DNA of 45,846 nucleotides from Gilliamella sp. App4-10. GTDB lineage: Bacteria > Pseudomonadota > Gammaproteobacteria > Enterobacterales > Orbaceae. Positions 1 through 41,527 of this stretch are shown piece by piece. The position numbers were made by a program, and so were the translations under genes. Within the stretch, counting starts at the first letter, position 1; each line of letters opens with the position of its first letter. A model generated the notes under the pieces. That model had not been told where the DNA came from and ran no database searches. It saw nothing but the letters and a program-made list of their open reading frames with translations. The stretch lies in NCBI RefSeq assembly GCF_001690495.1, contig NZ_LZGS01000025.1, positions 1 through 45,846 on the forward strand. The letters are read 5' to 3'.

Positions 1-601
1 TGTCCATATTGTTTTCCTATTTTCCCTAAAATCTCTATATTTTATTGTTAATGAGGTGATTGGCTTATCGTTATTTATAGTATTGTTTTAAGCATAAACG
101 ATAATGGAAACAGAGTATAAACCATTTTAACGCAACGTTAACCTTTTTAATCAATACTTTTGCTTAATATCAATAATATCTGTTAACTAAACGAGTATCT
201 GGTAGCTGCTTAACGCCTTTATTTAAAAAGCGATTTAAGCAACGCTATACTTTATTAAGTACATTTTTTAACCTGTTAAATGAAAAATAATTTTATGCTG
301 AAGCGGTATAGATTTCTGGATATGTTAACTAGAAATTCCGTCTTTTTTAATAAAGAAAAGCTCAGTTTTATTGCTGACTGTGCTATAACTATATGAAATT
401 TAAAGATTAATTGGTAGAATGAAAAATCCTAATATTCCCTCTATTTTATTCTAATATTACTTTAATAAAAACAATGCATTATAAAATCATTGTTATTATT
501 AAAATCATTGAAAAAGTTGGTGGAAATTTGGTGTTAAATATTTTAATAATAAAACAATGTGTTATAATTGGAGTGTTCCCTATACACATAGGGATAAACC
601 G
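1..601. repeat. Left arm of a >=601-bp perfect inverted repeat (CRISPR leader module)
   Basis: Position p here pairs with position 41528-p at the other end of the window. I compared the two arms line by line as reverse complements and found no mismatch or gap from 1 to 601. The arm holds, from left to right, the reverse complement of the first seven bases of a vgrG-like gene (CAT at 5-7), the leader of array 1 and its first repeat. Identity ends exactly where spacer 1 starts. The arm is cut by the window edge, so the duplication is probably longer and may include a second vgrG to the left. Confidence 0.95.
8..572 (+). promoter_or_regulatory. CRISPR array 1 leader / divergent vgrG promoter region
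   Basis: This AT-rich, ORF-poor stretch lies upstream of array 1 in the reading sense in which the repeat ends GATAAACCG, the usual leader side for type I-E. It must also carry the promoter and ribosome binding site of a vgrG-like gene reading left from about 7. Visible motifs are a tandem AAAATCATTG at 483-492 and 501-510, and an IHF-like AATCAATACTTTT near 152. Assigning promoter boxes by eye is unreliable here. A possible -35 TTGGTG at 517-522 with -10 TATTTT at 539-544 is only a suggestion. Confidence 0.7.
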
Positions 602-1457
602 TTTGCGCGCTATGTCTTGAACTGATAGCGGTTGTGTTCCCTATACACATAGGGATAAACCGAAATCGATCACCAGTCATCCGATGGCAGTATGGTGTTC
701 CCTATACACATAGGGATAAACCGTGTGATATTTATGTAATTAAGTTGCCGGGAACGTGTTCCCTATACACATAGGGATAAACCGGAGGTTTTAAAGGTGG
801 TTAATGAGTTGAGGGAGTGTTCCCTATACACATAGGGATAAACCGCGTTGATACGTGTTTTTACTCTGCTGAGCTGTGTGTTCCCTATACACATAGGGAT
901 AAACCGAAACTGTACAAGACATATATCAAGTGGTGGCCGTGTTCCCTATACACATAGGGATAAACCGTAATGAAAATGGTGAGGTCGCATTTAGAATTAG
1001 TGTTCCCTATACACATAGGGATAAACCGGTTACCTAAAAGGTTGTCCTTATACTCCAATCGTGTTCCCTATACACATAGGGATAAACCGGAGTAAATAGA
1101 ATGAATGTTAAAATAATGTTTGTGTTCCCTATACACATAGGGATAAACCGACTATTTCCCATTTTTTGAAAACGGAATGGAAGTGTTCCCTATACACATA
1201 GGGATAAACCGCTAACGAAATAACATGGTTTAAATTCGAGGGTGTGTTCCCTATACACATAGGGATAAACCGACATTTTCCCGCTCGTCGGCGATATGGA
1301 TATCGTGTTCCCTATACACATAGGGATAAACCGTTAAAGATTGATGCCATCTGTATTTCCATTCAGTGTTCCCTATACACATAGGGATAAACCGGGCTTG
1401 CTGTCTAATGAATGTTGATTTATCTGCTGTTCCCTATACACATAGAGGAATAAACTC
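573..1457 (+). CRISPR. CRISPR array 1, type I-E-like repeat, 15 repeats and 14 spacers
   Basis: Fourteen identical 29-base repeats start at 573, 634, 695, 756, 817, 878, 939, 1000, 1061, 1122, 1183, 1244, 1305 and 1366, a strict 61-base pitch with 32-base spacers. Each begins GTGTTCCC, ends GATAAACCG and has an inner palindrome CCCTAT-ACAC-ATAGGG. The start, end and length match the E. coli type I-E repeat class. A fifteenth, degenerate repeat (1427-1457) has a two-base insertion and end changes, which marks the old, leader-distal end. The 14 spacers are all different by eye. No cas gene is in the window, so the array depends on a cas operon elsewhere or is an orphan. Confidence 0.98.
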
Positions 1458-1557
1458 TCAAGCTAGAATGGCTCATAGCGATGAAAAATCAACTAAATTT
1501 TATACCAAAAACCATACCGAATGGGTTGAAGTTCCGCACATCCAAATCGTAATTTAA
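1458..1557 (+). pseudogene. C-terminal remnant of a tyrosine recombinase (integrase)
   Basis: The reading frame that ends at the TAA at 1555-1557 encodes a tail with ARMAHSDEKSTKFYTKNH followed by TEWVEV. The spacing of the His and Tyr (MAHSD...T.FYT..H) resembles the last catalytic box of phage and island tyrosine recombinases. Nothing upstream in this frame belongs to the gene: the frame runs straight into the degenerate last CRISPR repeat. So only about 33 codons survive, fused in frame to array sequence. The family assignment rests on a short motif; the fragment nature is certain. Confidence 0.5.
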
Positions 1558-2391
1558 GCGGGGGTAAAACTCGTTTAAGTTATTGATATCTATAACACTC
1601 CCTAAACCCCTGTTTTTTCTTACAGTTAAAAGCAAATAATTAATTGAATTATATCATTATTTTTAGTGTTAGAACCTAATTTTAACATAGTGGGGGGGCA
1701 GTGGTTAGAGTCCACCTAAGCGTACCATTCTAAAGCCTTACCTAAAAAGCCTTTAAAGTGATTACCTTAAATCTATCTTTTATTAGTGAGATAAAATGAG
1801 GGTAAAAATGATATCATCGAATAGCTCTTTAAATGCTAACAACTTCAAAATAAACAAATTTTTTGCAAAAAAACCTCAATAAAATCAATACTTTTCCTGA
1901 CCGATTTTTTGCTTAAAATTTGAGTTTTATTTTGGTGGAAGGAGTTTGATTATTTTTAATACGTGGCTTAACTCGTCTCCGGTTTGATAACATTCTACTC
2001 ATTTAACTTTCCCCTTTTTCATTATCAATTTCAAAAAGCAATTTATATATTTCTTTCATAGATTCGAATCGCTCTTTAGTCCAATACTGGCTATTCTGTT
2101 ATTGTTGTCGATTTGATATTAATAGTTTTTTGCTTGTCATTACTGAATATGCTCAAAAGAATATATAGGTTGCATGTTTTCTATTAGGTTAAGTATGCAG
2201 TCTTTGCTAAAACATAAGTATTTCTTGAAACTTTTGACAAAAATCAGTCACTTTTGTTGATACAATTTGCATACTTTCTGATTTATTTATATTTAAATGC
2301 TTTTTATCGTGGCAAATACTCTGTTTTTTAGTGATTCTATTTTAGAAATGGCTCCAACCAACTAGCTTCTCATTTTTGGTATTTATAAAAT
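1558..2391. other. Gene-poor scar between the array and guaA
   Basis: No intact gene longer than about 30 codons is visible on either strand, and I see no tRNA. The minus strand carries two tiny overlapping frames (see the entry at 1913-2140). With the recombinase tail just to the left and the 3' end of guaA just to the right, this is best read as the decayed end of an integrative element. I did not find a convincing second copy of the guaA 3' end here that would mark an attachment site. Confidence 0.45.
1913..2140 (-). pseudogene. Two tiny broken minus-strand frames
   Basis: From the ATG at 2138-2140 the minus strand reads MTSKKLLISNRQQ, hits a TAA at 2099-2101, then continues in the same frame as QNSQYWTKERFESM...LLFEID to a stop at 2003-2005. 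Directly adjoining that stop (TAAATG) a second frame of 29 codons, rich in Arg and Lys, runs to 1913. The amino-acid composition of the first frame looks like real protein interrupted by one nonsense change. I do not recognise either product. The position next to an integrase tail suggests small island genes. Confidence 0.3.
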
Positions 2392-2424
2392 AAAAAAACA
2401 GCCTGTTTTTAGGCTGTTTTTTTT
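2392..2424 (-). terminator. Bidirectional terminator downstream of guaA
   Basis: A 7-bp stem (ACAGCCT 2398-2404 with AGGCTGT 2411-2417) is flanked by A residues on the left and a T run on the right, so it can stop transcription on both strands. It lies about 30 bases past the guaA stop codon. Confidence 0.85.
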
Positions 2425-2456
2425 AAAATTTTTAAACCAGTTTTAGGAACGGTTAG

Positions 2457-4040
2457 CTATTCCCATTCTATAGTCGCCGGTGGTTTTCCGCTTATATCAT
2501 ATACGACACGAGAAATACCATTGACTTCGTTGATGATTCGATTGGATACTCGCCCTAAGAAGTCATAAGGTAAATGAGCCCAATGTGCGGTCATAAAATC
2601 GATGGTTTCAACAGCACGCAGTGAAACGACCCAGTCATATTTTCGACCGTCACCCATTACGCCAACAGAGCGTACTGGTAAAAATACGGTAAAAGCTTGG
2701 CTGACTTTGTGGTATAAATCTGCCTTATATAGCTCTTCAATAAAAATGGCATCGGCTTTGCGTAATAAGTCACAATATTCTTTCTTTACTTCACCAAGTA
2801 CCCGCACACCTAAGCCTGGTCCTGGAAATGGGTGACGATAAAGCATGTCATAAGGTAGCCCAAGTTCTAAGCCCACTTTGCGAACTTCGTCTTTAAATAG
2901 TTCTCTCAAAGGTTCGACCAAGCCCATTTTCATATCTTCGGGTAAGCCACCAACATTATGATGTGATTTAATTACATGGGCTTTGCCGGTATCAGCAGCT
3001 GCCGATTCAATAACATCAGGATAGATAGTGCCTTGAGCTAACCATTTTACCTCTTTTAACTTTGCTGCTTCTTCATCAAATACAGCAACAAATTCACGTC
3101 CAATAATTTTGCGTTTCGCTTCGGGATCTGCTTCACCTTTTAGTGCAGCTAAAAAACGCTCTTCGGCATTTACGGCAATAATATTTAAGCCAAATTTATT
3201 ACCAAACATCTCCATAACTTGTTGTGCTTCGTTCAAGCGTAATAAGCCATGATCAACAAAGACACAAGTTAACTGATCACCAATCGCTTGATGCAATAAC
3301 AATGCTGTAACAGAAGAATCTACCCCACCCGATAAACCGAGTAAGACTTTGTCATTACCAACCTGTTCTTTAATTCGAGCAATAGCATCGGTAATAATTG
3401 AAGATGGTGTCCAAAGTTTTTCGCAGTGACAGATATCAATCACAAAACGTTGCAATAACTCGAAACCTTTAACTGTATGAGTCACTTCTGGATGGAATTG
3501 AACTCCATAAAATTGTTTTTCGTCATTAGCCATAATAGCAAATGGGCAAGTTTCAGTACGACCAATCAGAGTAAAACAGTCAGGCAAGGCTGTTACTTTG
3601 TCACCGTGGCTCATCCAAACATCAAGTTGATGAATACCTTTTTCGCTTGTGCTATCCAATATGCCATCAGTTAATTTTGACGATCCCACAAGATCCACTT
3701 TAGCATAACCAAATTCACGTTGGTTAGAACCAGTCACTTGCCCCCCCTTACCAACTTGAATGGCCATAGTTTGCATGCCATAACAGATACCCAAAACAGG
3801 TACACCAGCATTAAAGACATATTGTGGAGCTCGTGGACTATTAGCTTCTGTGGTACTTTCTGGACTTCCTGATAGAATAATACCTTTAGGATTAAATTGT
3901 TTGATTTTCTCTTCTGATACATCCCACGGCCAAAGTTCACAGTACACACCAATTTCACGAATACGTCGAGCAATTAATTGAGTAACTTGTGAACCAAAAT
4001 CGAGGATTAATATGCGCTGTTGGTGGATGTCTTTTTTCAT
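2457..4040 (-). CDS. guaA: GMP synthase (glutamine-hydrolysing)
   Basis: Converts XMP to GMP with ATP and glutamine, the last step of guanine nucleotide synthesis. The 527-residue product is close to the E. coli enzyme throughout. It has a class I glutamine amidotransferase domain (Cys86 in GICYGMQ, His and Glu in FHPEV), then an ATP pyrophosphatase domain (SGGVDSS near residue 230), then the dimerisation domain ending in PPATIEWE. The frame is open 18 codons further upstream, but I chose the ATG at 4038-4040 because the family starts there and AGGA lies about 9 bases ahead. guaB is not adjacent, unlike in E. coli. The 3' end of guaA is a known insertion site for genomic islands, which fits the debris beyond it. 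Confidence 0.97.
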
Positions 4041-4262
4041 CAATTTTATTCCTAAACTATGAACTAATACAAAATCAGGGTGATATTGTACCATTTACCA
4101 AATAAATTGAGAGCATTAATTAAAAACAATTATAAATATTTTATATTATTAATAATTTTGAAATCATCTTATTACAGAATTCAATATCATGGTCATCAAA
4201 CCAACCTTGTGATAAGTCAACAAATCAAAAAAATTGAATTCTCTTTACTTAATTAATAAGTA

Positions 4263-4277
4263 AACTTATAATAAGTT
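4263..4277. promoter_or_regulatory. Palindromic operator candidate ahead of the SRPBCC/marR pair
   Basis: A perfect 7-1-7 palindrome (AACTTAT, A, ATAAGTT) sits about 20 bases before the first start codon, inside a stretch that repeats related half-sites (AAGTAAACTT, GTTAACTTAC). MarR proteins bind such AT-rich palindromes, and the second gene of the pair is a marR homologue, so autoregulation is a reasonable inference. Confidence 0.5.
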
Positions 4278-4298
4278 AACTTACCAAAAGGAGGCTCT

Positions 4299-4730
4299 AT
4301 GAATACCATTTCAATTTCTTTCATATTACCAACCAAAGCTAAACCAACTCAAATTTGGCAATACTATACTGATCTTAATTTAAGAAAATTATGGGAAACT
4401 GATCTTGAAGACTTTCGTATATTTGGTAACTTAAAAACAGGGGCTAAAGGTATTTTCAAATTACAAAATATACCGAAAATGGAAGTGACTTTATCAAAGA
4501 TTATTGATGAGCAAGAATTTACAGAACAATTTGATATGCCTGAAATAGGTTTACTGTTTTTCTCACATCAAATTATTGAAATATCGCATAATCAATATGC
4601 ATTAAAATCAGAAATTTCTCTAAAACCGGATCCAAAAATGGATACTAAAGCATCCTATGATTTTATAAAACAGATTTCAGATGATATTATTGATAAAACT
4701 TACAAATTAAATGGCTTAGTTGAAGGGTAA
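4299..4730 (+). CDS. SRPBCC-fold (START/Bet v1-like) small protein
   Basis: The 143-residue product starts with ISFILPTKAKPTQIWQYYTD and goes on with LRKLWETDLEDF. This is the usual opening of polyketide-cyclase/START-like proteins, where a first strand leads into a helix with a conserved Trp. The rest alternates strands and a long C-terminal helix, as expected for a single-domain ligand-binding cup. No signal peptide or membrane segment is seen. A strong GGAGG lies 6 bases before the ATG. The stop is 3 bases before the next ATG, so it is co-transcribed with the MarR-type gene. The natural ligand cannot be told from sequence; sensing or binding a hydrophobic compound under MarR control is an inference. 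Confidence 0.7.
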   Translation: MNTISISFILPTKAKPTQIWQYYTDLNLRKLWETDLEDFRIFGNLKTGAKGIFKLQNIPKMEVTLSKIIDEQEFTEQFDMPEIGLLFFSHQIIEISHNQYALKSEISLKPDPKMDTKASYDFIKQISDDIIDKTYKLNGLVEG

Positions 4731-4733
4731 ATT

Positions 4734-5201
4734 ATGACAAAGGACAATAAGTTTTTGACTCAATTCCAAACTGATTCTGAATCTATTGGTTTTATTTTTA
4801 TGAAAACTTATTCGTCCTGGCATACGAATATCAAAAATTGCTTGAAAAAACAGTCTATCACTCATCCTCAATTTATAGTGCTTGCAACGCTTGCTTATCT
4901 ATCACAGCAACCAGACGAAATAACACAAGTTATTTTATCAAATAAAACAAATATCGATGTGATGACAATGTCCCAAATATTAGAGAATTTAGAAAAAAAG
5001 GATTATATAAAACGCTCTTGCTCAATTAAAGATAGTCGAGCAAAATCCATTCAATTAACACAAAAAGGATTGAATAAAGCAAATGAAACTGTACCTTTGG
5101 TTGAACAAATAGATAAAGATTTTTTTTCAACACTACAAGGTGATAAAGAACAATTTATGAAAATGTTATTAACACTATTAAAAACCAACATGGAGGGATA
5201 A
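4734..5201 (+). CDS. MarR-family transcriptional regulator
   Basis: A 155-residue protein with the MarR layout: N-terminal dimer helices; a winged helix-turn-helix around residues 45-110, with THPQFIVLATLAYLSQ, then DVMTMSQILENLEKKDYI and the wing SIKDSRAKSIQLTQKG; and a C-terminal dimer helix. The wing sequence (DSRAKSIQLT.KG) is the most diagnostic part. It follows the SRPBCC gene by 3 bases and probably represses the pair through the palindrome at 4263-4277. The ligand is unknown. Confidence 0.85.
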   Translation: MTKDNKFLTQFQTDSESIGFIFMKTYSSWHTNIKNCLKKQSITHPQFIVLATLAYLSQQPDEITQVILSNKTNIDVMTMSQILENLEKKDYIKRSCSIKDSRAKSIQLTQKGLNKANETVPLVEQIDKDFFSTLQGDKEQFMKMLLTLLKTNMEG

Positions 5202-5370
5202 AATCATTTATAAATTTTTATTATTTATTGTTTTTATCAACTTTGAATGCTTGGATTTGACTTAAAATAAGTTTTTGAAAACTTTGTCTCAAATTTCTAA
5301 AACAAAATACTTTAAAACTGAATCGTTATAACTCAAGCTGTTAAAGCTCATTACTTGACTAAATTTAATT

Positions 5371-5398
5371 AAAAAAAGGTGATATTACATCACCTTTT
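5371..5398 (-). terminator. Terminator downstream of pta
   Basis: Ten-base stem AAAAGGTGAT (5374-5383) with ATCACCTTTT (5389-5398) and a 5-base loop. On the minus strand it is followed by a T run (5377-5371). It lies about 27 bases past the pta stop codon and may also stop the marR transcript coming from the left. Confidence 0.85.
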
Positions 5399-5425
5399 AT
5401 CTATAGTTAGAACGTTTTGCTAAAC

Positions 5426-7576
5426 TTATTTTGCAGCGTTTTGTTCTTGTGCTGATTGAATTGCGGTTAATGCAATGGTGTAGACAATATCGTCAACTAA
5501 TGCACCACGAGACAAATCATTAACAGGTTTACGCATACCTTGTAGCATAGGACCAATCGAAACAAGATCGGCTGAACGTTGTACAGCTTTATATGTCGTA
5601 TTACCTGTATTAAGATCAGGGAAGATAAATACTGTTGCTTTACCTGCTACTTGTGAATTTGGCGCTTTCGATTTTGCTACATCTGGCATTACCGCGGCAT
5701 CATATTGCAATGGACCATCGATCATAAGATCTGGACGTTTTTCTTGAGCAATGCGAGTTGCTTCTTTCACTTTTTCAACATCAGCACCTTGACCCGAGCT
5801 ACCTGTTGAGTAAGAGATCATCGCAACGCGTGGTTCAATACCAAAGGCAATTGCTGTATCAGCTGATTGAATCGCAATTTCGGCTAACTCTTGTGCATTT
5901 GGATCTGGATTAATTGCGCAGTCGCCATAAATATACACTTGATCAGGCATTAACATAAAGAATACTGATGAAACAAGTGAACTACCCGGGGCAGTTTTAA
6001 TTAATTGTAATGGTGGACGGATAGTATTAGCAGTTGTATGCACAGCACCTGACACTAAACCATCAACTTCATTTGCTTCAAGCATCATTGTACCAAGTAC
6101 TACATTATCAGCTAATTGCTCTCGAGCAATTACTTCTGTCATACCTTTATTTTTACGTAATTCAACTAAACGAGGTACATATTTTTCACGAATTAATTCA
6201 GGATCAACAATTTCAACACCTTGACCTAAACTCACGCCTTGAGAAGCGGCAACTTTACGCACTTCGTCCGGATTACCAATTAATACGCATTTAGCGATAT
6301 TACGCTCAGCACAAATTGCTGCTGCTTTAACTGTTCTTGGTTCATCACCTTCTGGTAATACCACTACTTTTTTCGCATTACGCGCAAGTTCAGTTAATTG
6401 GTAACGGAATGCAGGAGGAGACAGACGACGTGCAGAATTTACCACTTCATTTAATGATTTAACCCATTTAGCATCGATATGGTCAGCTACATAATTTTGG
6501 GTATTTTCCATACGTTCTTTATCATCCACAGGGATTTCTAAATTGAATTGTTGTAAATTAATCGACGTTTGGAAAGTGTTAGTTTTAACTGTAAATACAG
6601 GTAACCCCGTATCAAAAGCAGGTTGGCATAATTTTGCGATTTTTTCGTCGATTTCGTAACCACCAGTTAAAAGTACACCACCAATAGCCACACCATTCAT
6701 AGCAGCTAAACTAATCGTCACTAATACATCAGCCCGATCAGCAGAAGTCACTAACAGTGCATTTGGTTGTAGATGACTGATAATGTTAGGCACACTACGT
6801 GAGCAAAAAGATATATGTTTAATGCGGCGATTTTTGATATCACCTTCATTAATAATTTTAGCGTCAAAATGTTTAGCAATATCAATAGAACGACAAGCAC
6901 TTAAATCCATATTCCAAGGAATACACCCAAGTATTGGCAATGGACTATGTGCATTTAAATCATCGATAGTGATTTTTTTATCATCAAATTTAGGTGTGTG
7001 ATAAATTTCAGCGACATCAGGACGAGCAAGACTTTGTTCTTCAACTGGCGCATTGACTTTATTAACAATCACACCAACGATTTTTTCGTTTTTAATGCCA
7101 CCAAAGTTAGATCGAGCAATTTCAATACGATCTCTAAGTTGCTCTGGCGTATCTTTGCCCATATTGACCACAAAAATAATTTCGGCACCAAGTGTTTTAG
7201 CAATATTATTATTGAGTTCATTAGCAAAAGGATAATCAGACGTAGGTACAATCCCTTCAACCAAAACAACATCAGCACCTTTCGTGTTTTCAGCATAAAG
7301 GGCTACGATTTCTTCCATTAACACATCTTGTTGATTTAAACCTAATAGGTTTTCAACATGGCTCATTTTAAGCGGTTTTAGTGTTGGGATTGAAGTGTTA
7401 TGACTAACTAAAGTTGTCGTATTGTCTGGCGCATCGCCACCCGCTCTAGGTTGTGCTACTGGTTTGAACACGTTTAAGTTAATACCTTGACGCTCCATAG
7501 CTCGAATAACACCAAGACTCACCCCCGTTAAACCAACGTTGGTACCGGTAGGAATGAGCATAATAGTACGAGACAT
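5426..7576 (-). CDS. pta: Phosphate acetyltransferase
   Basis: Interconverts acetyl-CoA plus phosphate and acetyl phosphate plus CoA; with AckA it forms the acetate overflow/uptake pathway. The 716 residues match the long enterobacterial form (about 714). There is an N-terminal P-loop/BioD-like domain ([17 protein letters not shown]), then a DRTGG domain around residues 220-340 ([20 protein letters not shown]), then the catalytic PTA domain from about 390 ([36 protein letters not shown]). It lies 66 bases after ackA in the same direction, with a hairpin in the gap, so part of the ackA transcript may stop before pta. Confidence 0.97.
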
Positions 7577-7611
7577 AATTTTTACCTCTTAATTCTTTTT
7601 ATATAAAAAAC

Positions 7612-7632
7612 AAACCGCCATTTAGGCGGTTT
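7612..7632 (-). terminator. Intergenic hairpin between ackA and pta
   Basis: Eight-base stem AAACCGCC/GGCGGTTT with a 5-base loop (ATTTA on the plus strand). On the minus strand it is followed by a T-rich stretch (7610-7600). It could reduce read-through from ackA into pta or stabilise the ackA message. Confidence 0.65.
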
Positions 7633-7642
7633 TAAATATTTA

Positions 7643-8848
7643 TTACGCAGTTAGGCGCGCAGCATCTTGAGCAATGACAAGCTCTTCATTAGTTGGGATT
7701 ACCATCGCAATAGCTGAACCCTCTTTAGTGATTGTGCCACCTTTACCAAAACGCGCAGCTAAGTTACGCTCTTGATCAAGTTCAAAACCAAGAATAGTTA
7801 ATTTTTGTAATGCCATACGACGCACTTCTTCAGCGTTTTCACCGATACCACCAGTAAATATGATAGCATCTAAACGACCGTCTAAAAGCATTGCATAACC
7901 ACCGATATATTTGACTAAACGATGAACAAACACATCTAAAGCGTTTTTAGCGTTTTCATCTGTTTCGTAATTATCGGTAACATAACGACAGTCGCTACTT
8001 ACACCTGTCAAACCTAATAAACCTGATTTTTTGTTTAAAAGATTATTAATATCAGCAACCGACATTTTTAAATTGTCGTGTAAGAAGAACATAATCGCTG
8101 GGTCGATATCACCACTTCGTGTACCCATGACTAAACCTTCAAGTGGAGTTAAGCCCATTGAAGTTTCAACACATTTACCATTTTTAACGGCAGTGATTGA
8201 TGCACCATTACCTAAGTGACAAGTGATCACATTAGTTTCTTCAACTGGTTTATTCAATAATCTTGCCGCTTCGCGACTAACATAATAATGACTAGTACCG
8301 TGGGCACCATAACGACGAACTCCATGTTTAGTATAAAGTTCGTTAGGAAGAGCATATAGATAAGCTTCTTTTGGCATTGTGGTATGGAATGCAGTATCAA
8401 ATACAGCAACGTTTTTAGTTTTTAAGTGTGGGAAGGCAGCAAAGGCTTCTCGAATACCGATTAAATGCGCAGGGTTATGTAATGGTGCAAATGCAGCGGC
8501 ATCTTCGATTCCTTTTAATACTGAATCATCAATAATCACTGATTGTGTATATTTTTCGCCACCATGAACGATACGGTGACCAATCGATTTTATACTATCT
8601 AATAATTCTGGTTTTTGTGGGAAGATGCTATTAACAATAAAACGAATTGCTTCGCTGTGTGCTGCGCCAGCACCTAAAGAAGCTTCGTTCTTAACACCAT
8701 CAAGTTTCCACTTAATACGAGCATCAGGAAGATGAAAACATTCAGCTAATCCAGATAAAAACTCATCACCATTTTCAGGGTTGATAATGGCAAATTTTAA
8801 TGATGAACTTCCGCAATTAAGAACAAGAGCGTTATTACTTGATGACAT
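7643..8848 (-). CDS. ackA: Acetate kinase
   Basis: Phosphorylates acetate with ATP, or makes ATP from acetyl phosphate in fermentation. The 401-residue protein follows the E. coli sequence end to end: [13 protein letters not shown] at the N terminus, [10 protein letters not shown], the catalytic region [28 protein letters not shown], and [13 protein letters not shown] near the C terminus. The frame is open 14 codons further up, but the ATG at 8846-8848 gives the family length and has AGGA about 7 bases ahead. First gene of ackA-pta; yfbV diverges upstream, as in E. coli. Confidence 0.97.
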
Positions 8849-8880
8849 AGTAATTCCTATAAATTGAATAAAAAGACATA

Positions 8881-8921
8881 TACCAATCAAAATTGGTAAC
8901 TTAACACATGATTAAAATCAA
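8881..8921. promoter_or_regulatory. Two palindromes upstream of ackA, one FNR-like
   Basis: TACCAAT (8881-8887) and ATTGGTA (8892-8898) form a 7-4-7 palindrome. Next to it, 8908-8921 reads ATGAT-TAAA-ATCAA, one mismatch from the FNR/CRP-type consensus TTGAT-N4-ATCAA, about 60 bases ahead of the ackA start. Oxygen control of ackA-pta is known in enteric bacteria; that this site does it here is inference. Confidence 0.45.
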
Positions 8922-9020
8922 TGTGACTACGCTAAGGTGACTTCTGATATCTTGTTTTTTGAGATAGAATAAAGAGAGCCCCCAATTTGAATGGGACTAT
9001 TTTAAGATAATAAGAAGTGA

Positions 9021-9494: not shown

Positions 9495-9508
9495 AAAAGG
9501 TAACAACA

Positions 9509-10039: not shown

Positions 10040-10311
10040 TACAACATAAAAATCAATAAATTAATTTTAACAAATATTAAAATATCTAAACACAGATAAG
10101 CGAGATCACCTGTTTATTGAAATTTAATACAAAAATAGCATACAAATTATTATATATTTGTTAAAACATACCCCTTTTATCAATACTATTCTTATGTCCA
10201 AAACGAATATTGTTATAATTATTAATTAGTATCATCTTTTTAAGTTATCTTTATAATAATAACAAAATTACTAAGATTATCCGTTTTTAAATCATTTATA
10301 AGGATTCATCC

Positions 10312-30860: not shown

Positions 30861-30866
30861 TATCCA

Positions 30867-32775: not shown

Positions 32776-32924
32776 AAACGTATATATTACCTAAAACTTT
32801 TAGACAAAGTTTTGCTAGTTAAATGCAAGGTGCTTATCATACAGGATTAAACAGTTATAGAAAACAACCACGTACTTACGTTATAATCTGGCGATAATTT
32901 TTCAACGATATCTACAAATTCATC

Positions 32925-35900
32925 ATGCCTAAAACAGTTAATATTTCAAACATAATTCCTCAAAAGTCAGGTGAAGTAAAGCAAATTGGGCAGCTTGTTG
33001 GCTCATCCTTATCACAATTTTGTGCCCAAGCAATAGATGCACATGAAGGTTTAGTTGTGATTGTGACCGATGATATGCAACAAACCTCGCGTATTCACGA
33101 AGAACTTAAACAATTTTCACCATTTCCTTCTATTATCTTTCCTGATTGGGAAACATTGCCTTATGATAGCTTCTCGCCCCATCAAGATATCGTATCAGAA
33201 CGCCTGTCTTGTCTTTATCATCTTGGACATTTAACCAAAGGAGCATTAATTTTACCCATTAATACCTTAATGCAAAAAGTTTGCCCACAAAGCTATTTGG
33301 GTGGGCACGTGTTTATGATGAAAAAAGGCTTACAAATTAGTCGTGAACATTTACGCCTTCAACTTGAAAATGCTGGCTATCGCTCAGTCAGTCAAGTAAT
33401 GGAACATGGCGAATATGCTACTCGTGGTGCTTTGTTTGACATCTATCCGATGGGCAGTGATAAGCCCTATCGTATCGATTTTTTTGATGATGAAATCGAC
33501 AGCATTCGCACTTTTGATGTCGAAACTCAGCGTACCTTTGATGAAATCGCTGAAATACAATTGCTACCAGCGCATGAGTTTCCTTTTGATAAAACGGCAA
33601 TCGAACTGTTTCGTAGTCAATGGCGAGAACAATTTGAGGTCAGATTAGATGCAGAAAGTATCTATCAGCAAGTGAGCAAAAATATTTTGCCAACGGGTAT
33701 TGAATATTGGCAAGCACTGTTTTTTAACGAACCATTAACACCGCTATTTTCTTATTTTTTAGCTAATACCTTAATTATTAATACCGTTAATATTGAGCAA
33801 TATGCTAACAAATACTGGCAAGACATTACCCAGCGTTATGAAAGCCGCAAAGTTGATCCTATGCGACCATTGCTTGCACCTAGTGTTATTTGGTCTAAAA
33901 CTGACGAAATTTTTGCCAATTTTAAATGCTACCCAAGAATGGTTGTATCACATGTGGCAACGGCAGAATCAAGTAAAAACCTTAACTTACTTTATGCCGA
34001 GCTACCTAATATTGCTATTGAGATCCAACAAAAAGATCCTTACTTGCAATTTCAAAAATTTGTTGACGATTTTTCAGGAAAAATCATCTTTTCAGTTGAA
34101 TCAGAAGGACGCAAAGAAGCATTACAAGAAATTCTTGGACGCATTCGTATTCATCCAACCACCATCAATCAGCTTGATGAGCTCAAAAATTCTGATAGCC
34201 GATTTTATTTAATCGTTGGTGCTAGCGAGCAAGGTTTTATTAATCAGCAAGATAATTTTGCGTTTATTACCGAAAATGAGTTATTAGGGCGGCGGATTAT
34301 TCGTCGTAGAAAAGAAAGTAAACAAGCCATTAATACCGATTCACTTATTCGAAGTTTAGCTGAACTCACACCTGGTAAACCCGTTGTTCATTTAGAACAT
34401 GGTGTCGGTCGCTATGCAGGGCTCACCACATTAGAAACAGGCGGCATTACGGCAGAATATCTCATTTTATTATATGCTAATGAGACCAAACTTTATGTGC
34501 CAGTTTCGTCATTAAACTTAATAAGTCGTTACTCTGGCGGCGATGAAGAAAACGCCCCACTAAATAAACTAGGCTCTGATGCTTGGAGTAAAGCTCGGCA
34601 AAAAGCAGCCGAAAAAGTGCGCGATGTCGCAGCGGAATTACTCGATATTTATGCCGAACGTGAAAGCAAACCCGGATTTCAATTTCAACAAGACCGAGAG
34701 CAATATGAACTATTTTGCCAAGGATTTCCTTATCAAGAAACCAGCGATCAACAAAATGCCATTGGAGCAGTCATTGGCGACATGTGCTCGCCTTATGCCA
34801 TGGACCGATTAGTCTGCGGTGATGTGGGGTTTGGTAAAACCGAAGTTGCCATTCGTGCTGCATTTTTAGCTGTTATTAATCACAAACAAACCGCTGTTTT
34901 AGTGCCAACAACTCTACTTGCTGAACAACATTACGAAAGCTTTTGCGACCGTTTTGCCAATTGGCCTATCCGTATAGAAAGCCTGTCTCGCTTCAAAACC
35001 GCCAAACAACAAAAAGCCATTATAGAAGCCCTTGGCGAAGGCAAAATTGATATTGTGATTGGTACACATAAATTGCTACAAGAAGATATCAAGTGGAAAG
35101 ATTTAGGTTTACTAATTGTTGATGAAGAACACCGCTTTGGCGTTCGTCAAAAAGAACGCATTAAAGCAATGCGAGCAAATATCGATATTTTAACGCTAAC
35201 AGCAACCCCAATTCCACGAACGCTAAACATGGCGATGAGTGGTATGCGAGATCTTTCGATTATCGCAACGCCACCTGCTCGCCGGCTGGCGGTAAAAACC
35301 TTTGTTCGAGAATATGATGATCTTGTGATTAGAGAAGCCATTTTACGTGAAATTTTACGTGGTGGTCAGATTTATTATTTACACAATGACATCTCTGATA
35401 TCGAAAAAGTCAGCGAAAAACTGGCAGAACTGGTGCCCGAAGCACGCATTACCATTGGACATGGGCAAATGCATGAACGCGACTTAGAACGTGTGATGAA
35501 TGACTTTCATCATCAACGCTTTAACATACTTGTTTGTACTACCATTGTTGAAACGGGTATCGACATTCCTAACGCTAATACCATTATTATTGATCGTGCC
35601 GATAAATTCGGTTTAGCTCAGTTACATCAACTCAGGGGGCGAGTTGGACGTTCTTACCATCAAGCCTATGCTTATTTATTAACGCCACATCCTAAATTAC
35701 TCACTAAAGATGCTAAAAAGCGCTTAGAAGCTATTGCCTCGCTTGAAGATTTAGGCGCAGGTTTTGCGCTAGCCACACACGACCTTGAAATTCGGGGGGC
35801 AGGCGAGCTATTAGGTAGCGATCAAAGTGGGCAAATTGAAACTATTGGCTTTAACCTTTATATTGAACTGCTGGATGAAGCCGTTAAATCACTAAAAGAG

Positions 35901-36383
35901 GGTAAAGAGCCAACCCTAGAATCATTACTCAATAATCAGCAAACTGAAATTGAGTTACGTTTGCCAATACTGATTCCTGATGATTTTATTCCCGATGTTA
36001 ATACACGCTTATCGCTATATAAACGCATTGCGAGTATCACCGATCTTGTTGAACTCACCGACATTCAAGTCGAAATGCGTGATCGTTTTGGTCAATTGCC
36101 CGATGCTGTGCTGTTTTTATTAGAAACCACCAAAATCCGTTATCATGCAAGTCAATTAGGCATTACCAAAATCGAATTTGGCGAGAAAGGTGGTTATATT
36201 GAATTTGGTAGCAATAATAAGGTATCAGTCGATTATTTAATTGAAATGATTCAAAAAGAGCCAAAAAATTATCGCCTAGAAAGCTCAAATCGATTAAAAT
36301 TACAAAAATCAGAATTACAGCGAATCGATCGTATTGAATATATTAAAAATTTGTTGTCTGATTTTGCAAATCATCAAGAATGA
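32925..36383 (+). CDS. mfd: Transcription-repair coupling factor
   Basis: Removes RNA polymerase stalled at DNA damage and recruits UvrA. The 1152 residues equal the family length (E. coli 1148). Order: UvrB-like domain (ISNIIPQKSGEVKQIGQLVG, PDWETLPYDSFSPH); RNA polymerase interaction domain near 480-540 (GKPVVHLEHGVGRYAGL); helicase motifs Walker A CGDVGFGKTEVA, DEEHRFG, TATPIPRTL; second helicase half with QLRGRVGR and the TRG motif region; C-terminal autoinhibitory domain. It diverges from lolC and has no close partner except the following YdgA-like gene 32 bases on. Confidence 0.97.
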   Translation: MPKTVNISNIIPQKSGEVKQIGQLVGSSLSQFCAQAIDAHEGLVVIVTDDMQQTSRIHEELKQFSPFPSIIFPDWETLPYDSFSPHQDIVSERLSCLYHLGHLTKGALILPINTLMQKVCPQSYLGGHVFMMKKGLQISREHLRLQLENAGYRSVSQVMEHGEYATRGALFDIYPMGSDKPYRIDFFDDEIDSIRTFDVETQRTFDEIAEIQLLPAHEFPFDKTAIELFRSQWREQFEVRLDAESIYQQVSKNILPTGIEYWQALFFNEPLTPLFSYFLANTLIINTVNIEQYANKYWQDITQRYESRKVDPMRPLLAPSVIWSKTDEIFANFKCYPRMVVSHVATAESSKNLNLLYAELPNIAIEIQQKDPYLQFQKFVDDFSGKIIFSVESEGRKEALQEILGRIRIHPTTINQLDELKNSDSRFYLIVGASEQGFINQQDNFAFITENELLGRRIIRRRKESKQAINTDSLIRSLAELTPGKPVVHLEHGVGRYAGLTTLETGGITAEYLILLYANETKLYVPVSSLNLISRYSGGDEENAPLNKLGSDAWSKARQKAAEKVRDVAAELLDIYAERESKPGFQFQQDREQYELFCQGFPYQETSDQQNAIGAVIGDMCSPYAMDRLVCGDVGFGKTEVAIRAAFLAVINHKQTAVLVPTTLLAEQHYESFCDRFANWPIRIESLSRFKTAKQQKAIIEALGEGKIDIVIGTHKLLQEDIKWKDLGLLIVDEEHRFGVRQKERIKAMRANIDILTLTATPIPRTLNMAMSGMRDLSIIATPPARRLAVKTFVREYDDLVIREAILREILRGGQIYYLHNDISDIEKVSEKLAELVPEARITIGHGQMHERDLERVMNDFHHQRFNILVCTTIVETGIDIPNANTIIIDRADKFGLAQLHQLRGRVGRSYHQAYAYLLTPHPKLLTKDAKKRLEAIASLEDLGAGFALATHDLEIRGAGELLGSDQSGQIETIGFNLYIELLDEAVKSLKEGKEPTLESLLNNQQTEIELRLPILIPDDFIPDVNTRLSLYKRIASITDLVELTDIQVEMRDRFGQLPDAVLFLLETTKIRYHASQLGITKIEFGEKGGYIEFGSNNKVSVDYLIEMIQKEPKNYRLESSNRLKLQKSELQRIDRIEYIKNLLSDFANHQE

Positions 36384-36415
36384 TAATTTAAAATATAATT
36401 AATAAGAGAATTATA

Positions 36416-37699
36416 ATGAAAAAAACCACACTTGCTATAGGAATCGTTGCTGTATTAGGTATTGCCTACGTAGGTACGTCATGGTACACCGGTAACATGC
36501 TCGAAAATCATATCGACCACCAATTAACACAAATCACAAACAAAGTTAACCAGAGTCAAGACGATTTCACGTTTTCTGTTACCCAAAGTCATTATCAAAA
36601 AGGTATCTTTTCAACTAAATTACATTTAACCGTTACAGCGTCACCTCAAAATGCAACAGGTGAAGATACTCAACCAAAAACTTTTTTTGATGATGATGTC
36701 ACCATTCATCATGGTCCCTTCCCTATTGCGGCACTAGCTAAAGGAACCTTTGTTCCACAAATGGCTTGGTTAGAATATGAAATGACCGAACAAGCCAATA
36801 CACAACTTTGGAAACTAGCCGGTAATCAGCCTTTTATTACTGGACATGTAGGTGTAAGTTATGGAGAATATCTCACAGTTAAACTAGCAAGCAAAGCGAT
36901 TAATGTCACTCAAGATGAATTCCCATCAATTGATGGTGGATTTGAACTTGGAAAAGGCGATTATACCATTAAGAGCAACTCTAATGGCTCTGACATTTCA
37001 ACTAATATAAAAATCGATAAACTTTCATTAACCTATCCTATTTCGTTTAAATCAAAACCCGTTTCACTGGTTATTAATAAATTTGTGATGAACCAAACAA
37101 ATGTCTTAAATAACACCACCAACACTGTCGATGGTTCGTTTTCAAGTAGTGTTGATTCGATTATTTATGGTCAACAAAATCTAGGTAATGGATCATTAGA
37201 TATTAACTTTAAAGGGCTTGATAAACACCTGTTTAGCAATCAATTGGGAATGGGCGAATCTGGCTCAGAGGATGCCGATAAAAAGCACAATATCCAACTC
37301 TCGTTAAATAAATTCAATTGGCACACTCCTGCTGGCGATATTAATGCGAACCTAATGTTTGATCTATCTGATGTTGATAGTGTAGCTATTGATGAAGCAG
37401 ATTACGACAAAATCAACACACTTAAATTAAAGCTTGAAGCGCCATTTGACGTATTAGCTCATTTATCTGCGCAAATTGAAAACCCTAACGCTAACGATGT
37501 AACGCCAGAACAAGTTGCTAAAGCAAATCAAAACTTACAATTTATGTCGGCATTAATGATAAGTAACTCTCAATTTTTGACTACAAGCAATGGTGAAACT
37601 AAAGGTATCTATTCTGATGTTAGCCTAACTAAAGATAGTGATGAAGTTAGCGTAAATGGCAAAACAGTAACCAAAGAAGAATTCTTTGATCACTTATAA
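36416..37699 (+). CDS. YdgA-like DUF945 family protein
   Basis: A 427-residue protein with an N-terminal hydrophobic segment (TTLAIGIVAVLGIAYVG, residues 4-20) that could be a signal anchor. It is followed by SWYTGNMLENHIDHQL, the family opening (short spaced residues then Y.G), SVTQSHYQKGIFSTKLHL, and HHGPFP. Domain DUF945 proteins (YdgA, YihF) share these points; they are envelope proteins of unknown function with distant AsmA-type features. The ATG has AGAG about 8 bases ahead. A weak hairpin with TATTTTAT follows at 37731-37757. Confidence 0.85.
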   Translation: MKKTTLAIGIVAVLGIAYVGTSWYTGNMLENHIDHQLTQITNKVNQSQDDFTFSVTQSHYQKGIFSTKLHLTVTASPQNATGEDTQPKTFFDDDVTIHHGPFPIAALAKGTFVPQMAWLEYEMTEQANTQLWKLAGNQPFITGHVGVSYGEYLTVKLASKAINVTQDEFPSIDGGFELGKGDYTIKSNSNGSDISTNIKIDKLSLTYPISFKSKPVSLVINKFVMNQTNVLNNTTNTVDGSFSSSVDSIIYGQQNLGNGSLDINFKGLDKHLFSNQLGMGESGSEDADKKHNIQLSLNKFNWHTPAGDINANLMFDLSDVDSVAIDEADYDKINTLKLKLEAPFDVLAHLSAQIENPNANDVTPEQVAKANQNLQFMSALMISNSQFLTTSNGETKGIYSDVSLTKDSDEVSVNGKTVTKEEFFDHL

Positions 37700-37730
37700 C
37701 TAGCCAATTAATTTCTCAAACTAACCCATT

Positions 37731-37757
37731 CCGCCACTAATGCTGGCGGTATTTTAT
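37731..37757 (+). terminator. Weak terminator after the YdgA-like gene
   Basis: Stem CCGCCA (37731-37736) with TGGCGG (37744-37749), 7-base loop, then TATTTTATCTTTT. The T tract is interrupted, so termination may be partial. Confidence 0.55.
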
Positions 37758-37787
37758 CTTTTATAACTAGAACAAAAAAGCACACTT

Positions 37788-39188
37788 ATGAATACAAATT
37801 CATCATCCACATCGGAAAACCAATTTAAACGAACTATGCAAACCCGCCATTTAATTATGCTATCGCTGGGTGGCGTTATTGGTACCGGTCTATTTTTTAA
37901 TACAGGATATATTATCGCCACTGCAGGCGCAATGGGTGCTATTATTGCTTATTTAATTGGTGCACTAGTCGTTTATTTAGTGATGTTGTGCCTTGGTGAG
38001 TTGGCAGTTGCTATGCCAGAAACCGGCGCGTTTCACTCCTATGCTTCGCGCTTTATTAGCCCAGGTACTGGTTATACCGTTGCTTGGCTGTATTGGTTAA
38101 CTTGGACAGTGGCACTCGGTTCCAGCCTAACCGCAGCTGGCCTATGTATGCAATATTGGTTTCCTACTGTTTCGGTCTGGGTTTGGTGTTTAATCTTTTG
38201 TATCGTGATTTTTGCGTTAAACATCGTGACCGCACAATTTTTTGCCGAAAGTGAATTTTGGTTTTCAATCATTAAAGTGATCACTATTATCATCTTTATT
38301 ATTGCCGGTGCCACTGCTATCTTTGGCTTTGTTCCAATGAAAAACGACATGCCAGCCCCCTTTTTACATAATATTACCGATAATGGTTGGTTACCGAATG
38401 GCATCACCCCAATTATTATGACCATGGTTTCCGTCAATTTTGCTTTTTCAGGTACAGAGCTAATCGGCATTGCAGCAGGCGAAACCCATAATCCTGAAAA
38501 ATCGATCCCACTGGCGATAAAAACAACTATTTTAAGATTGATTATCTTTTTTATTGGAACGATTTTTGTGTTAGCGGCGCTATTGCCTATGGATCAAGCT
38601 GGCGTTATTACCAGCCCATTTGTGATGGTATTTGAAAATATCGGCATTCCATACGCAGCCGATATATTTAATTTTGTCATTTTAACGGCTATTTTATCAG
38701 CTGCCAATTCAGGGCTTTATGCCGCTGGGCGTATGTTGTGGTCGCTGTCGAATCAAGGTACATTACCAAAGTGCTTTGCTAAATTAACCCATAAAGGCAT
38801 TCCAGCCACCGCTATTGCAGTGAGTATGCTTGGCGGATTATTAGCATTATTTTCAAGTGTGATAGCGCCCGATACTGTGTTTGTAGCATTAACCGCTATT
38901 TCTGGCTTTGCCGTGGTGGCAGTTTGGTTAAGTATTTGTGCTTCGCATTACTTTTTTAGAAAGCAACTATCTGCAACTGAGCAAAAAGCACTAAAATATA
39001 AAGCACCATTTTATCCGTTTGTACCTATTTTAGGCTTTATTTTATGCTTAATTGCCTGCATTGGTTTAGCATTCGATTCTGAACAACGCATTGCGCTTTA
39101 TTGTGGTATTCCTTTTGTGATTGTCTGCTTTATTGCCCACCACTTTACCCAAGCCTATCAAAAGAGAGTAGTGAAAAATGATAACTAA
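37788..39188 (+). CDS. mmuP: S-methylmethionine permease
   Basis: Amino-acid/polyamine/organocation transporter with about 12 membrane helices. The 466 residues are very close to E. coli Mmu[81 protein letters not shown], and [20 protein letters not shown]. It brings in S-methylmethionine, a plant methyl donor, for MmuM. Its end overlaps mmuM by 11 bases. Confidence 0.95.
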
Positions 39189-40116
39189 TCATCCAATTAG
39201 CACATTGTTAAAGCAAAAAAAGCACATCATCATTGATGGTGCACTAGCCAGCGAACTGCAACATCGTGGATGCGATCTTAATGATAGTTTATGGTCAGCA
39301 AAAGTGTTAATTGAAAAGCCCGAACTAATCCGCCAAGTCCATTATGACTATTTCAAAGCTGGTGCTGATTGTGCTATCACTGCTAGCTATCAAGCCTCGC
39401 CATTAGGGTTTGAAAAAAAGGGGATTACGTTTGAAGAATCTATCAAACTAATTAAAACCAGCGTTGAACTTGCACAGCAAGCTAAGCTGCAGTATTTGAA
39501 TGAAACAAACCGAAATAAAACATTATTAATTGCCGGTTCAGTCGGTCCTTATGGGGCATATCTTGCCAATGGTTCAGAATATACCGGTGACTATCAACTT
39601 ACCGAATCTGAATTTATTGTCTTTCATCGTGATCGTATTCAAGCCTTGATTGAGGCTAAGGTTGATATCCTTGCTTGCGAAACTCTACCTTCATTTGCTG
39701 AAATCAAAGCGTTAGTTAAATTGATACAACAGTTTCCTACAATCAACGCTTGGTTTTCGTTAACATTAAAAGATGCCCAGCACCTTAGCGATGGTTCGCC
39801 GTTATCACAAGTTATCGATTATTTAAACAATATCGAACAAATTGTGAGCATTGGTGTTAACTGTATTGCGTTAGAAAACGTGACACCAGCGTTAGAAGTA
39901 CTAAATAAACTCACCTCCAAACCATTAATTGTTTATCCAAATTCAGGTGAACAATACAATCCAATCACTAAACAGTGGCACAAAAATCATCAACATAATT
40001 GCACTTTCAGCAATCAACTGCCAACTTGGGTTAAATTAGGCGCAAAATTAATTGGCGGCTGCTGCCAAACAACGCCGAATGATATTGAAGAAATTGTGAG
40101 GTTATTAAAAAGCTAA
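39178..40116 (+). CDS. mmuM: Homocysteine S-methyltransferase
   Basis: Transfers the methyl group of S-methylmethionine to homocysteine, giving two methionines. The 312 residues show [46 protein letters not shown], and zinc ligands in [11 protein letters not shown] (first Cys) and GGCCQTTP (two Cys). Overlaps mmuP, so the pair is translated together, as in E. coli mmuPM. Confidence 0.96.
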
Positions 40117-40377
40117 TTGTATGAAACTATTTCAAATGAAATGCTTAATGTAGACAATGGTAACTTTTAGATTTAGCGACTAAATAAAAGCAAACAGTAA
40201 TACATATTAATAACCCGCCTAGCGGATAAAAAAGAGATATTTCTTAAAAAAACTGAATGTTTTTTGTCAAGAAATTTCAGGTAATACCTATGTTTTAGTA
40301 TAAAACAACATAATAAATTCAATAGCAAGAGAGCAAGCTATTTGTTGTTTAGGTCATATTCTGTAAAGATGGGCGAA
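40117..40377. other. Intergenic region between mmuM and array 2
   Basis: About 260 AT-rich bases with no gene. A loose hairpin (GATATTTCTT near 40231, AAGAAATTTC near 40269) is the only structure I see. No recombinase fragment is present here, unlike at the distal end of array 1. Confidence 0.4.
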
Positions 40378-40955
40378 AATGAAAATCCTATAGGTATACG
40401 AAACACCCTTGATTAATGTTTATTAATGCGTATTGATACGGTTTATCCCTATGTGCATAGGGAACACACCTCTTCTGCAGTGGGGTTTTCGTCAATAAGC
40501 GGTATCCCTATGTGCATAGGGAACACTCCATCTGCGTGTTTAACGGCTTCTTCAATGGCGGTTTATCCCTATGTGTATAGGGAACACTTGTTTACCGCTA
40601 TTGAAACCGACACAAATATCGGTTTATCCCTATGTGTATAGGGAACACTAAATGTCCACTTAATGATAACCGAGAGTTTACGGTTTATCCCTATGTGTAT
40701 AGGGAACACCGATTTAGTAATTGCGTTAATGCTGGTTGATACGGTTTATCCCTATGTGTATAGGGAACACCTATTTACTCCTTGCGTAGCTAATTAAAGT
40801 ATACGGTTTATCCCTATGTGTATAGGGAACACAATACAAGGGTTTTGATGATTTTTGCAATTACGCGGTTTATCCCTATGTGTATAGGGAACACGATAAC
40901 AATGATTTTGCTTGCTCGAGCAAATCCGGTTTATCCCTATGTGTATAGGGAACAC
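40378..40955 (-). CRISPR. CRISPR array 2, same repeat as array 1, 9 clear repeats plus one decayed
   Basis: Repeats are the reverse complement of array 1 and occupy 40439-40467, 40500-40526, 40559-40587, 40620-40648, 40681-40709, 40742-40770, 40804-40832, 40866-40894 and 40927-40955; the leader is to the right. Spacers are 32 bases except two of 33 (40771-40803, 40833-40865). The two clear distal repeats share a change (GTGCAT for GTGTAT on the plus strand), and the one at 40500 has also lost two bases. A decayed tenth repeat at 40378-40406 lies one 32-base spacer further. No spacer looks shared with array 1. Confidence 0.97.
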
Positions 40956-41527
40956 TCCAATTATAACACATTGTTTTATTATTAAAATATTTAACACCAA
41001 ATTTCCACCAACTTTTTCAATGATTTTAATAATAACAATGATTTTATAATGCATTGTTTTTATTAAAGTAATATTAGAATAAAATAGAGGGAATATTAGG
41101 ATTTTTCATTCTACCAATTAATCTTTAAATTTCATATAGTTATAGCACAGTCAGCAATAAAACTGAGCTTTTCTTTATTAAAAAAGACGGAATTTCTAGT
41201 TAACATATCCAGAAATCTATACCGCTTCAGCATAAAATTATTTTTCATTTAACAGGTTAAAAAATGTACTTAATAAAGTATAGCGTTGCTTAAATCGCTT
41301 TTTAAATAAAGGCGTTAAGCAGCTACCAGATACTCGTTTAGTTAACAGATATTATTGATATTAAGCAAAAGTATTGATTAAAAAGGTTAACGTTGCGTTA
41401 AAATGGTTTATACTCTGTTTCCATTATCGTTTATGCTTAAAACAATACTATAAATAACGATAAGCCAATCACCTCATTAACAATAAAATATAGAGATTTT
41501 AGGGAAAATAGGAAAACAATATGGACA
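40927..41527. repeat. Right arm of the >=601-bp perfect inverted repeat
   Basis: Exact reverse complement of 1-601 by line-by-line comparison. It covers the first repeat of array 2, its leader, the vgrG ribosome binding site and the first seven bases of vgrG. How far the identity continues into vgrG cannot be seen because the partner runs off the left edge. Confidence 0.95.
40956..41520 (-). promoter_or_regulatory. CRISPR array 2 leader / vgrG promoter region
   Basis: The 565 bases between array 2 and vgrG. On the minus strand they are the leader of array 2; on the plus strand they must hold the vgrG promoter, with AGGAAA about 9 bases before its ATG. The tandem AAAATCATTG motif of the array 1 leader is present at the same distance (63-91 bases) from the first repeat. 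Confidence 0.7.

What the first reader, a model, noticed from the sequence alone, without database searches (positions are those of the whole stretch)
1..41527. Perfect 601-bp inverted repeat of a vgrG/CRISPR-leader module bracketing 40 kb of core genes
Bases 1-601 equal the reverse complement of 40927-41527 with no difference I can find, and identity stops exactly where the spacers begin. Each arm contains the start of a vgrG, the full leader and the first repeat. Such a repeat should allow inversion of the core block (guaA to mmuM) by homologous recombination. It also implies recent duplication or ongoing gene conversion of the CRISPR leader together with a T6SS tip locus. Sequence identity is seen; inversion is inferred.
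Basis: partly seen in the sequence, partly recalled or inferred. Interest (0 to 1): 0.85.

Follow-up and report, generated by a model that had tools for sequence, protein, structure and literature searches.

The report
Recombining vgrG-CRISPR leader modules in Gilliamella
A bee-gut bacterium carries several near-identical copies of a DNA module that joins a weapon gene to a CRISPR memory array; two copies facing opposite ways flank a 40-kb stretch of chromosome, and gene order in relatives suggests that this stretch has been flipped by recombination between them.

Summary
The repeat is real: bases 1-601 equal the reverse complement of 40927-41527 exactly. Base 1 is the contig edge, so the arm is cut short there; the true arm probably runs about 293 nt into vgrG (inferred). 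The host is a Gilliamella. The arms are two of four vgrG/type I-E CRISPR modules found in this genome (100, 100, 99, 86%). One spacer of each array matches viral contigs beside AAG. Related species carry arrays at the same places (A beside guaA, B beside mmuM), with leaders only 80-83% identical to these, so the exact identity here reflects homogenisation within the genome. Arrays A and C24 share their last spacer and a 97% trailer, so a whole array was copied. Gene order supports a past inversion: ribE's 3' side faces mmuM in 13 of 13 relatives with both on one contig; here mmuM leads through vgrG to an effector cluster, while ribE's 3' side faces a vgrG that among the contig ends compared fits only the left arm. 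This rests partly on elimination (about 0.65). The distal leader is vgrG-upstream DNA. Ongoing flipping is untested. CRISPR-linked large-scale recombination is known; I found no report of this composite.

The parts
1..601 (+). Left arm: first 7 nt of vgrG (on the - strand, cut by the contig edge), vgrG upstream DNA, CRISPR leader and first repeat of array A
   Evidence: exact match to revcomp 40927-41527; contig edge
246..426 (+). Distal leader part, homologous to DNA upstream of vgrG in relatives whose vgrG has no array there
427..572 (+). Proximal leader, homologous to leaders of dispersed arrays in other Gilliamella genomes
573..1454 (+). CRISPR array A: 15 repeats (last one degenerate), 14 spacers, 61-nt period; spacer 2 matches a viral contig 33/33 beside AAG
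1395..1999 (+). Last spacer, last repeat and trailer of array A, 97% identical to the trailer of array C24; no match at this locus in G006 and G023
2457..4094 (-). guaA, left end of the bracketed core block
32925..36383 (+). mfd, inside the bracketed block
37788..39188 (+). S-methylmethionine permease, inside the block
39178..40116 (+). mmuM (homocysteine S-methyltransferase), right end of the core block
40440..40955 (-). CRISPR array B: 9 repeats, 8 spacers; spacer 4 matches two viral contigs 32/33 beside AAG
40927..41527 (-). Right arm: first repeat of array B, leader, vgrG upstream DNA and first 7 nt of vgrG
41521..44025 (+). vgrG (T6SS tip protein with DUF2345), head to head with array B
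   Evidence: TIGR01646 358 bits, PF05954, PF13296, PF10106
44043..45845 (+). Effector-like gene cut by the contig edge; a homologue in G024 has 1146 aa; no NCBIfam family, and only a sub-threshold SH3_3 match in Pfam
45799..45846 (+). 48-nt exact overlap with the start of contig C40, which holds orphan C-terminal cassettes of the same effector family

Best explanation
In this Gilliamella lineage a type I-E CRISPR leader-array lies head to head with a vgrG as one composite module present at several chromosomal sites. Because vgrG is multi-copy and nearly identical, the modules recombine with each other: conversion keeps leader and vgrG start identical (inferred from the identity pattern), whole arrays are sometimes copied (A and C24, shown by shared last spacer and trailer), and a crossover between the inverted copies A and B turned the guaA-mmuM block round relative to its flanks (inferred). 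After copying, each array gains its own spacers at the leader end (inferred from differing spacers with a shared last one). Whether the block still flips is unknown.
For: Exact 601-bp identity; four module copies. Orthologous array sites: A in G006 and G023, B in G019, C in G019. Yet G000 leaders A, B, C24 and C35 form one clade, 100/98/91-92% alike against 80-84% to the 11 leaders of four other genomes over the proximal part; DNA beyond the array at locus B is 87% identical between G000 and G019. A and C24 share the last spacer (1 mismatch) and a 606-nt, 97% trailer not matched at the guaA locus of G006 and G023. vgrG on C12 equals the right-arm vgrG over CDS nt 51-293, then diverges (84 mismatches in 1728), as at the end of a conversion tract. 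Junctions: mmuM points at ribE, 0.8-12 kb away, and ribE at mmuM, in 13 of 13 relatives with both on one contig. In G000 mmuM leads to vgrG, effector and C40 (48-nt overlap); the effector's cassettes lie on C40 and C42, and C42 goes on to genes that flank guaA in G017. ribE is on C12 with its 3' side towards a vgrG whose start differs from every other open vgrG start compared. By eye, a decayed vgrG remains at locus B of G019 (tblastn found none).
Against: The left arm-C12 link is by elimination in a fragmented assembly: six open vgrG 5' ends (one divergent, on C2) against four 3' starts, so a piece is missing. C40-C42 show no overlap, and the 48-mer at the right end occurs four times in the sequences counted. 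queH is within 31 kb of guaA in only 4 of 9 relatives with both on one contig. In three relatives (G007, G008, G024) ribE lies between mmuM and guaA, 1.8-6.9 kb from guaA, though with its 5' side towards guaA. G003 and G023 have mmuM and ribE on different contigs and three genomes gave no mmuM match. Outside G000 the leaders do not group cleanly by genome: D and E leaders of G017, G019 and G023 are 98-99% alike across genomes, and A of G006 and G023 fall apart from their D/E copies. A and B share no spacer or trailer.
Confidence: 0.7

Rival explanations
1. Simple recent copying: one vgrG-leader-array module was copied over another site, giving two identical copies; no inversion followed.
For: Exact identity and the copied array A/C24.
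Against: Array sites A and B are both occupied at the same places in other species, so neither site is new; copying between existing sites overlaps with the main reading. The swapped outside neighbours need a further event.
Confidence: 0.17
2. Homogenisation of vgrG is the only active process; the CRISPR leaders are passengers beside vgrG and the arms have never crossed over.
For: vgrG upstream copies without arrays are homogenised too (C10 98% over 1-337, C27 99% over 1-126). Recombination of T6SS genes in bee-gut bacteria is described (PMC8125069, passages seen). The promoter scan shows no special control region.
Against: Leaders away from vgrG (loci D, E, G006:C79, G017:C8) share 573-895 bp ending at the first repeat, so arrays have been copied without vgrG as well; neighbours look swapped.
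Confidence: 0.2
3. Assembly artefact: one arm is a collapsed or misplaced copy.
For: The left arm lies at a contig edge in a 53-contig assembly.
Against: G006 shows vgrG-leader-array-guaA independently, G019 an array beside mmuM at the orthologous place, a 99% copy was kept apart, and each arm runs into its own spacers.
Confidence: 0.04
4. A dedicated site-specific recombinase inverts the block (phase variation).
For: Inverted repeats flank the block.
Against: Arms of at least 601 bp that belong to a dispersed family point to general recombination. No dedicated search for a recombinase was made.
Confidence: 0.04

Closest known systems
CRISPR loci credited with large-scale chromosomal recombination in Thermotoga (DeBoy et al. 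2006, J Bacteriol: not held; seen as cited in passages of PMC5637354)
   Same: Several CRISPR loci in one chromosome linked to large-scale recombination.
   Different: Here the shared DNA is leader plus vgrG start, the leader is homogenised and partly made of DNA from upstream of a T6SS gene. What exactly recombined in Thermotoga I did not see.
Recombination among rhs and vgrG T6SS genes with orphan cassettes by C-terminal displacement in bee-gut bacteria (PMC8125069, passages seen)
   Same: Multi-copy vgrG, orphan cassettes, recombination between copies.
   Different: The held text of that paper has 0 occurrences of CRISPR; here CRISPR arrays ride on the recombining module.
Type I-E CRISPR arrays (AAG as the usual motif is recalled)
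   Same: 61-nt period, leader, I-E cas genes in the genome, spacers matching viral contigs beside AAG.
   Different: Six arrays found; one is beside the I-E cas genes; four are head to head with vgrG or a vgrG fragment.

Membership tests
Type I-E CRISPR array | 28-29 nt repeats with about 32-33 nt spacers | tested here: met
Type I-E CRISPR array | I-E cas genes with cas1 and cas2 in the genome | tested here: met
   C1: cas8e, 11e, 7e, 5e, 6e, 1, 2; cas3 of this operon was not scanned
Type I-E CRISPR array | Spacers match invaders next to AAG | tested here: met
   2 of 4 spacer patterns tried (of 22 spacers in A and B) hit viral contigs, 3 contigs in all, each with AAG
Type I-E CRISPR array | Transcribed and processed; new spacers acquired | not testable with these tools
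   needs RNA and acquisition assays
T6SS VgrG | VgrG domains above curated cut-offs | tested here: met
   TIGR01646 358 bits (cut-off 121.8), PF13296, PF10106
Inversion by recombination between inverted CRISPR loci | Near-identical inverted repeats of useful length at both ends | tested here: met
   601 bp, 100%
Inversion by recombination between inverted CRISPR loci | Relatives with the opposite orientation relative to flanks | tested here: inconclusive
   ribE 3' side faces mmuM in 13 of 13 relatives, not in G000; left junction by elimination
Inversion by recombination between inverted CRISPR loci | Both orientations in one culture | not testable with these tools
   no reads available
Site-specific phase-variation switch | Dedicated recombinase beside the invertible DNA | not tested
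   no dedicated scan made

The most novel reading that the evidence does not exclude
The T6SS vgrG family acts as a vehicle that multiplies CRISPR acquisition sites: an array fused to a vgrG spreads by vgrG-to-vgrG recombination, its leader absorbed vgrG upstream DNA, and that composite leader was then copied to sites without vgrG. The cell thus keeps several parallel memories under one homogenised leader, possibly controlled together with its T6SS, and rearranges its chromosome as a side effect.
Probability: 0.35. Interest if true: 0.78.

Novelty: new variant of a known kind. Interest (0 to 1): 0.62.

Why it matters
Leaders at several CRISPR sites are kept nearly identical within this genome, are chimeric with DNA from upstream of a T6SS gene, and sit at points where gene order changes. 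If borne out, this is a testable case of how arrays multiply away from cas genes, how spacer sets are spread over sites, and how antibacterial weapon genes shape chromosome order in bee-gut symbionts.

Tried and rejected
Rfam gave no family at gathering score and ARAGORN no tRNA. Phage-record search with whole arrays: array A one weak hit (E 0.9), array B none. Two of four spacer patterns had no hit in viral contigs, nor had the repeat. Promoter scan of the right arm: 6 sites against 4.6 (sd 2.2) expected, so no support for shared control. The idea that arrays lie beside vgrG across the genus was rejected: in complete genomes G001, G012, G024 and G029 the nearest leader-vgrG distance is 16-113 kb, G004 and G015 have arrays but no PF13296 match, and G025 has vgrG but no leader match. 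DeBoy 2006 is not held. A search for recombination between CRISPR with genome rearrangement and inversion gave 0 papers. The listings (5 of 5 papers; 20 of 200; 20 of 52; 8 of 11; 6 of 6; 10 of 11) show no title or abstract start that describes a vgrG-CRISPR module; the papers themselves were not read except passages of two. In DNA fetched by then, 13 non-array matches were found for 324 spacers, none from A or B; four of the 324 are duplicates of one G012 stretch held twice.

Mended on checking: queH near guaA is 4 of 9 relatives, not 4 of 8, and three relatives have ribE also near guaA. For these I lowered the inversion from about 0.7 to about 0.65 and the main reading from 0.72 to 0.70, and raised the simple-copying rival from 0.15 to 0.17.
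Full report
Observation. Window bases 1-601 and the reverse complement of 40927-41527 are identical, 0 differences; the match ends at base 602. The window is the whole of contig C25 of a 2.43-Mb, 53-contig assembly. The left limit is an assembly break 7 nt inside vgrG. vgrG is multi-copy here and several contigs begin or end inside it.

Host and setting. Its closest vgrG relatives in named genomes are Gilliamella, and G006, of the same genus, is App6-5 by matching contig lengths. There are type I-E cas genes on C1 and I-F cas genes on C35. I found the repeat family at five places (C25 twice, C24, C35, C39) plus a related array beside the I-E genes. Four of these six arrays, A, B, C24 and C35, are head to head with a vgrG or vgrG fragment about 570-600 bp away; for A only 7 nt of vgrG are visible. 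They are copies of one another, so these four are not independent cases.

The arrays look like I-E memory. A has 14 spacers, B has 8. Spacer A2 matches a viral contig 33 of 33 and spacer B4 two viral contigs 32 of 33, each with AAG at the junction. Two of the four patterns tried found nothing.

Composite leader. The proximal part (427-601) matches leaders across the genus. The distal part (246-426) matches DNA upstream of vgrG genes in App6-5, WF3-4 and some other named loci that have no array there. In the 17 stretches of distant species given to it found only two short matches (55 and 72 nt, 76-78%), both in one G012 stretch. Leaders at loci D, E, G006:C79 and G017:C8, which are not beside vgrG, carry the distal part too and share 573-895 bp ending at the first repeat with each other. 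The simplest reading: an array fused with a vgrG upstream region in an ancestor and the chimeric leader was then copied elsewhere. That direction is inferred.

Homogenisation. Locus A is occupied in G006 (with vgrG) and G023; locus B in G019, where vgrG-upstream DNA remains and a decayed vgrG stretch can be seen by eye although tblastn found none; locus C, beside a catalase-like gene (under the curated cut-off), in G019. Had each array only descended at its place, leaders would group by locus. In G000, A, B, C24 and C35 form one clade; proximal identity is 100% for A/B, 98% for C24 and 91-92% for C35, against 80-84% to the 11 leaders of G006, G017, G019 and G023. B and C42 of G019 also group. 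Against a general rule: D and E leaders of G017, G019 and G023 are 98-99% alike across genomes, the A leaders of G006 and G023 stand apart from their D/E copies, and some nodes of this 16-leader tree are weak. C39 of G000 is only 74-75% like the other G000 copies.

Whole-array copying. A and C24 share only their last spacer (1 mismatch) and a 606-nt stretch at 97%. At the guaA locus of G006 and G023 the conserved flank begins about 50 nt after the array; in G000 about 670 nt after it, so a C24-type trailer looks imported at A. A and B share no spacer and no trailer.

Inversion. Numbering window genes 1 (guaA) to 30 (mmuM): in G001, G003, G012, G017 and G029 the mmuM part and the guaA part face each other across 46-74 kb; G000 and G019 have 1-30 together with guaA and mmuM pointing outwards (not all genes 2-12 fell in the stretches fetched). 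So the block is derived and several events are involved. In 13 of 13 relatives with both on one contig, of 18 relatives searched, mmuM and ribE point at each other 0.8-12 kb apart. ribE is named. In G000 mmuM is followed by array B, vgrG and a cut effector gene, whose end overlaps the start of C40 by 48 nt; among ten contigs tested (C42 by its first 20 kb) only C40 begins so, but the 48-mer occurs four times in five sequences counted. In G000 the downstream cassettes of this family lie on C40 and C42. C42 leads on to an HlyD/RND-adaptor-like gene, two ABC-permease-like genes and queH (queH and the second permease are named from recall, no NCBIfam match at 1e-20). In G017 these lie next to guaA. 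queH is within 31 kb of guaA in 4 of 9 relatives with both on one contig; in the other five it is 232-361 kb away. ribE is on C12, which starts at vgrG nt 51; its 3' side faces that vgrG. Other open vgrG starts compared (C24, C37, C27, C53, divergent C2) differ from C12, C24 by one base. C12 equals the right-arm vgrG over nt 51-293 and then diverges. By elimination the left arm runs into C12 and the true arms are about 887 bp. ribE and the queH side would then be swapped, as an A-B crossover predicts. In G007, G008 and G024 ribE also lies 1.8-6.9 kb from guaA, but by its 5' side; the 3' side towards guaA would be special to G000. I put the inversion at about 0.65.

What is not shown. No reads, so no test of flipping; no expression data; promoter scan at chance. 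In the complete genomes searched, arrays do not sit beside vgrG. Of 78 loci, 4 have an I-E array of two or more repeats in the flank held (wkB308, wkB108, App6-5, Choc4-2); many loci are cut at contig edges.

Known context. CRISPRs credited with large-scale recombination in Thermotoga (PMC5637354 passages, citing DeBoy 2006). Recombination of rhs and vgrG in bee-gut bacteria (PMC8125069 passages). Joint quorum control of CRISPR and T6SS in Aliivibrio wodanis is a title and abstract start seen in a listing only (PMC8861277). I saw no description of a vgrG-CRISPR module in the listings; most subscription papers are not held.

Verdict. A real, non-trivial feature: a new variant of recombination at CRISPR loci, the vgrG fusion and leader homogenisation being the new parts.

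Noticed in passing
L203:60-3622, L217:1650-1921, L238:3219-3429 (wkB308, wkB108, Choc4-2): I-E arrays lie upstream of a vgrG with the trailer side facing it, the other way round from the window; possibly separate pairings.
   Followed up: partly
L109, L110, L111 (G001) and L104 (G012): Clusters of several separate leader-array units a few kb apart in one orientation, with single-repeat remnants.
   Followed up: no
G019:C25:3581-3996 versus G023:C41:11717-12986 and G017:C20:133184-133539: Array E keeps its leader-side genes in all three; in G019 the trailer is shared with G023 for about 275 nt and then other genes follow, as if a break fell just beyond the array.
   Followed up: partly
G023:C6 array A spacer 1 and G023:C41 array E spacer 10; G023:C41 array E spacer 9 and the last spacer of G000:C35: Identical spacers at different array loci, within a genome and across species.
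   Followed up: no
G000:C12:2-2587: The vgrG at the start of C12 is interrupted (two open frames and a stop).
   Followed up: no
G003:C45:334304-334982 (L260): A 103-bp piece of the vgrG upstream region is present three times upstream of a vgrG.
   Followed up: no
G000:C40 and C42: Runs of orphan C-terminal cassettes of one effector family, with an IS3-family transposase at C42:9575-10444 and an IS-like end of C40 (by eye).
   Followed up: partly
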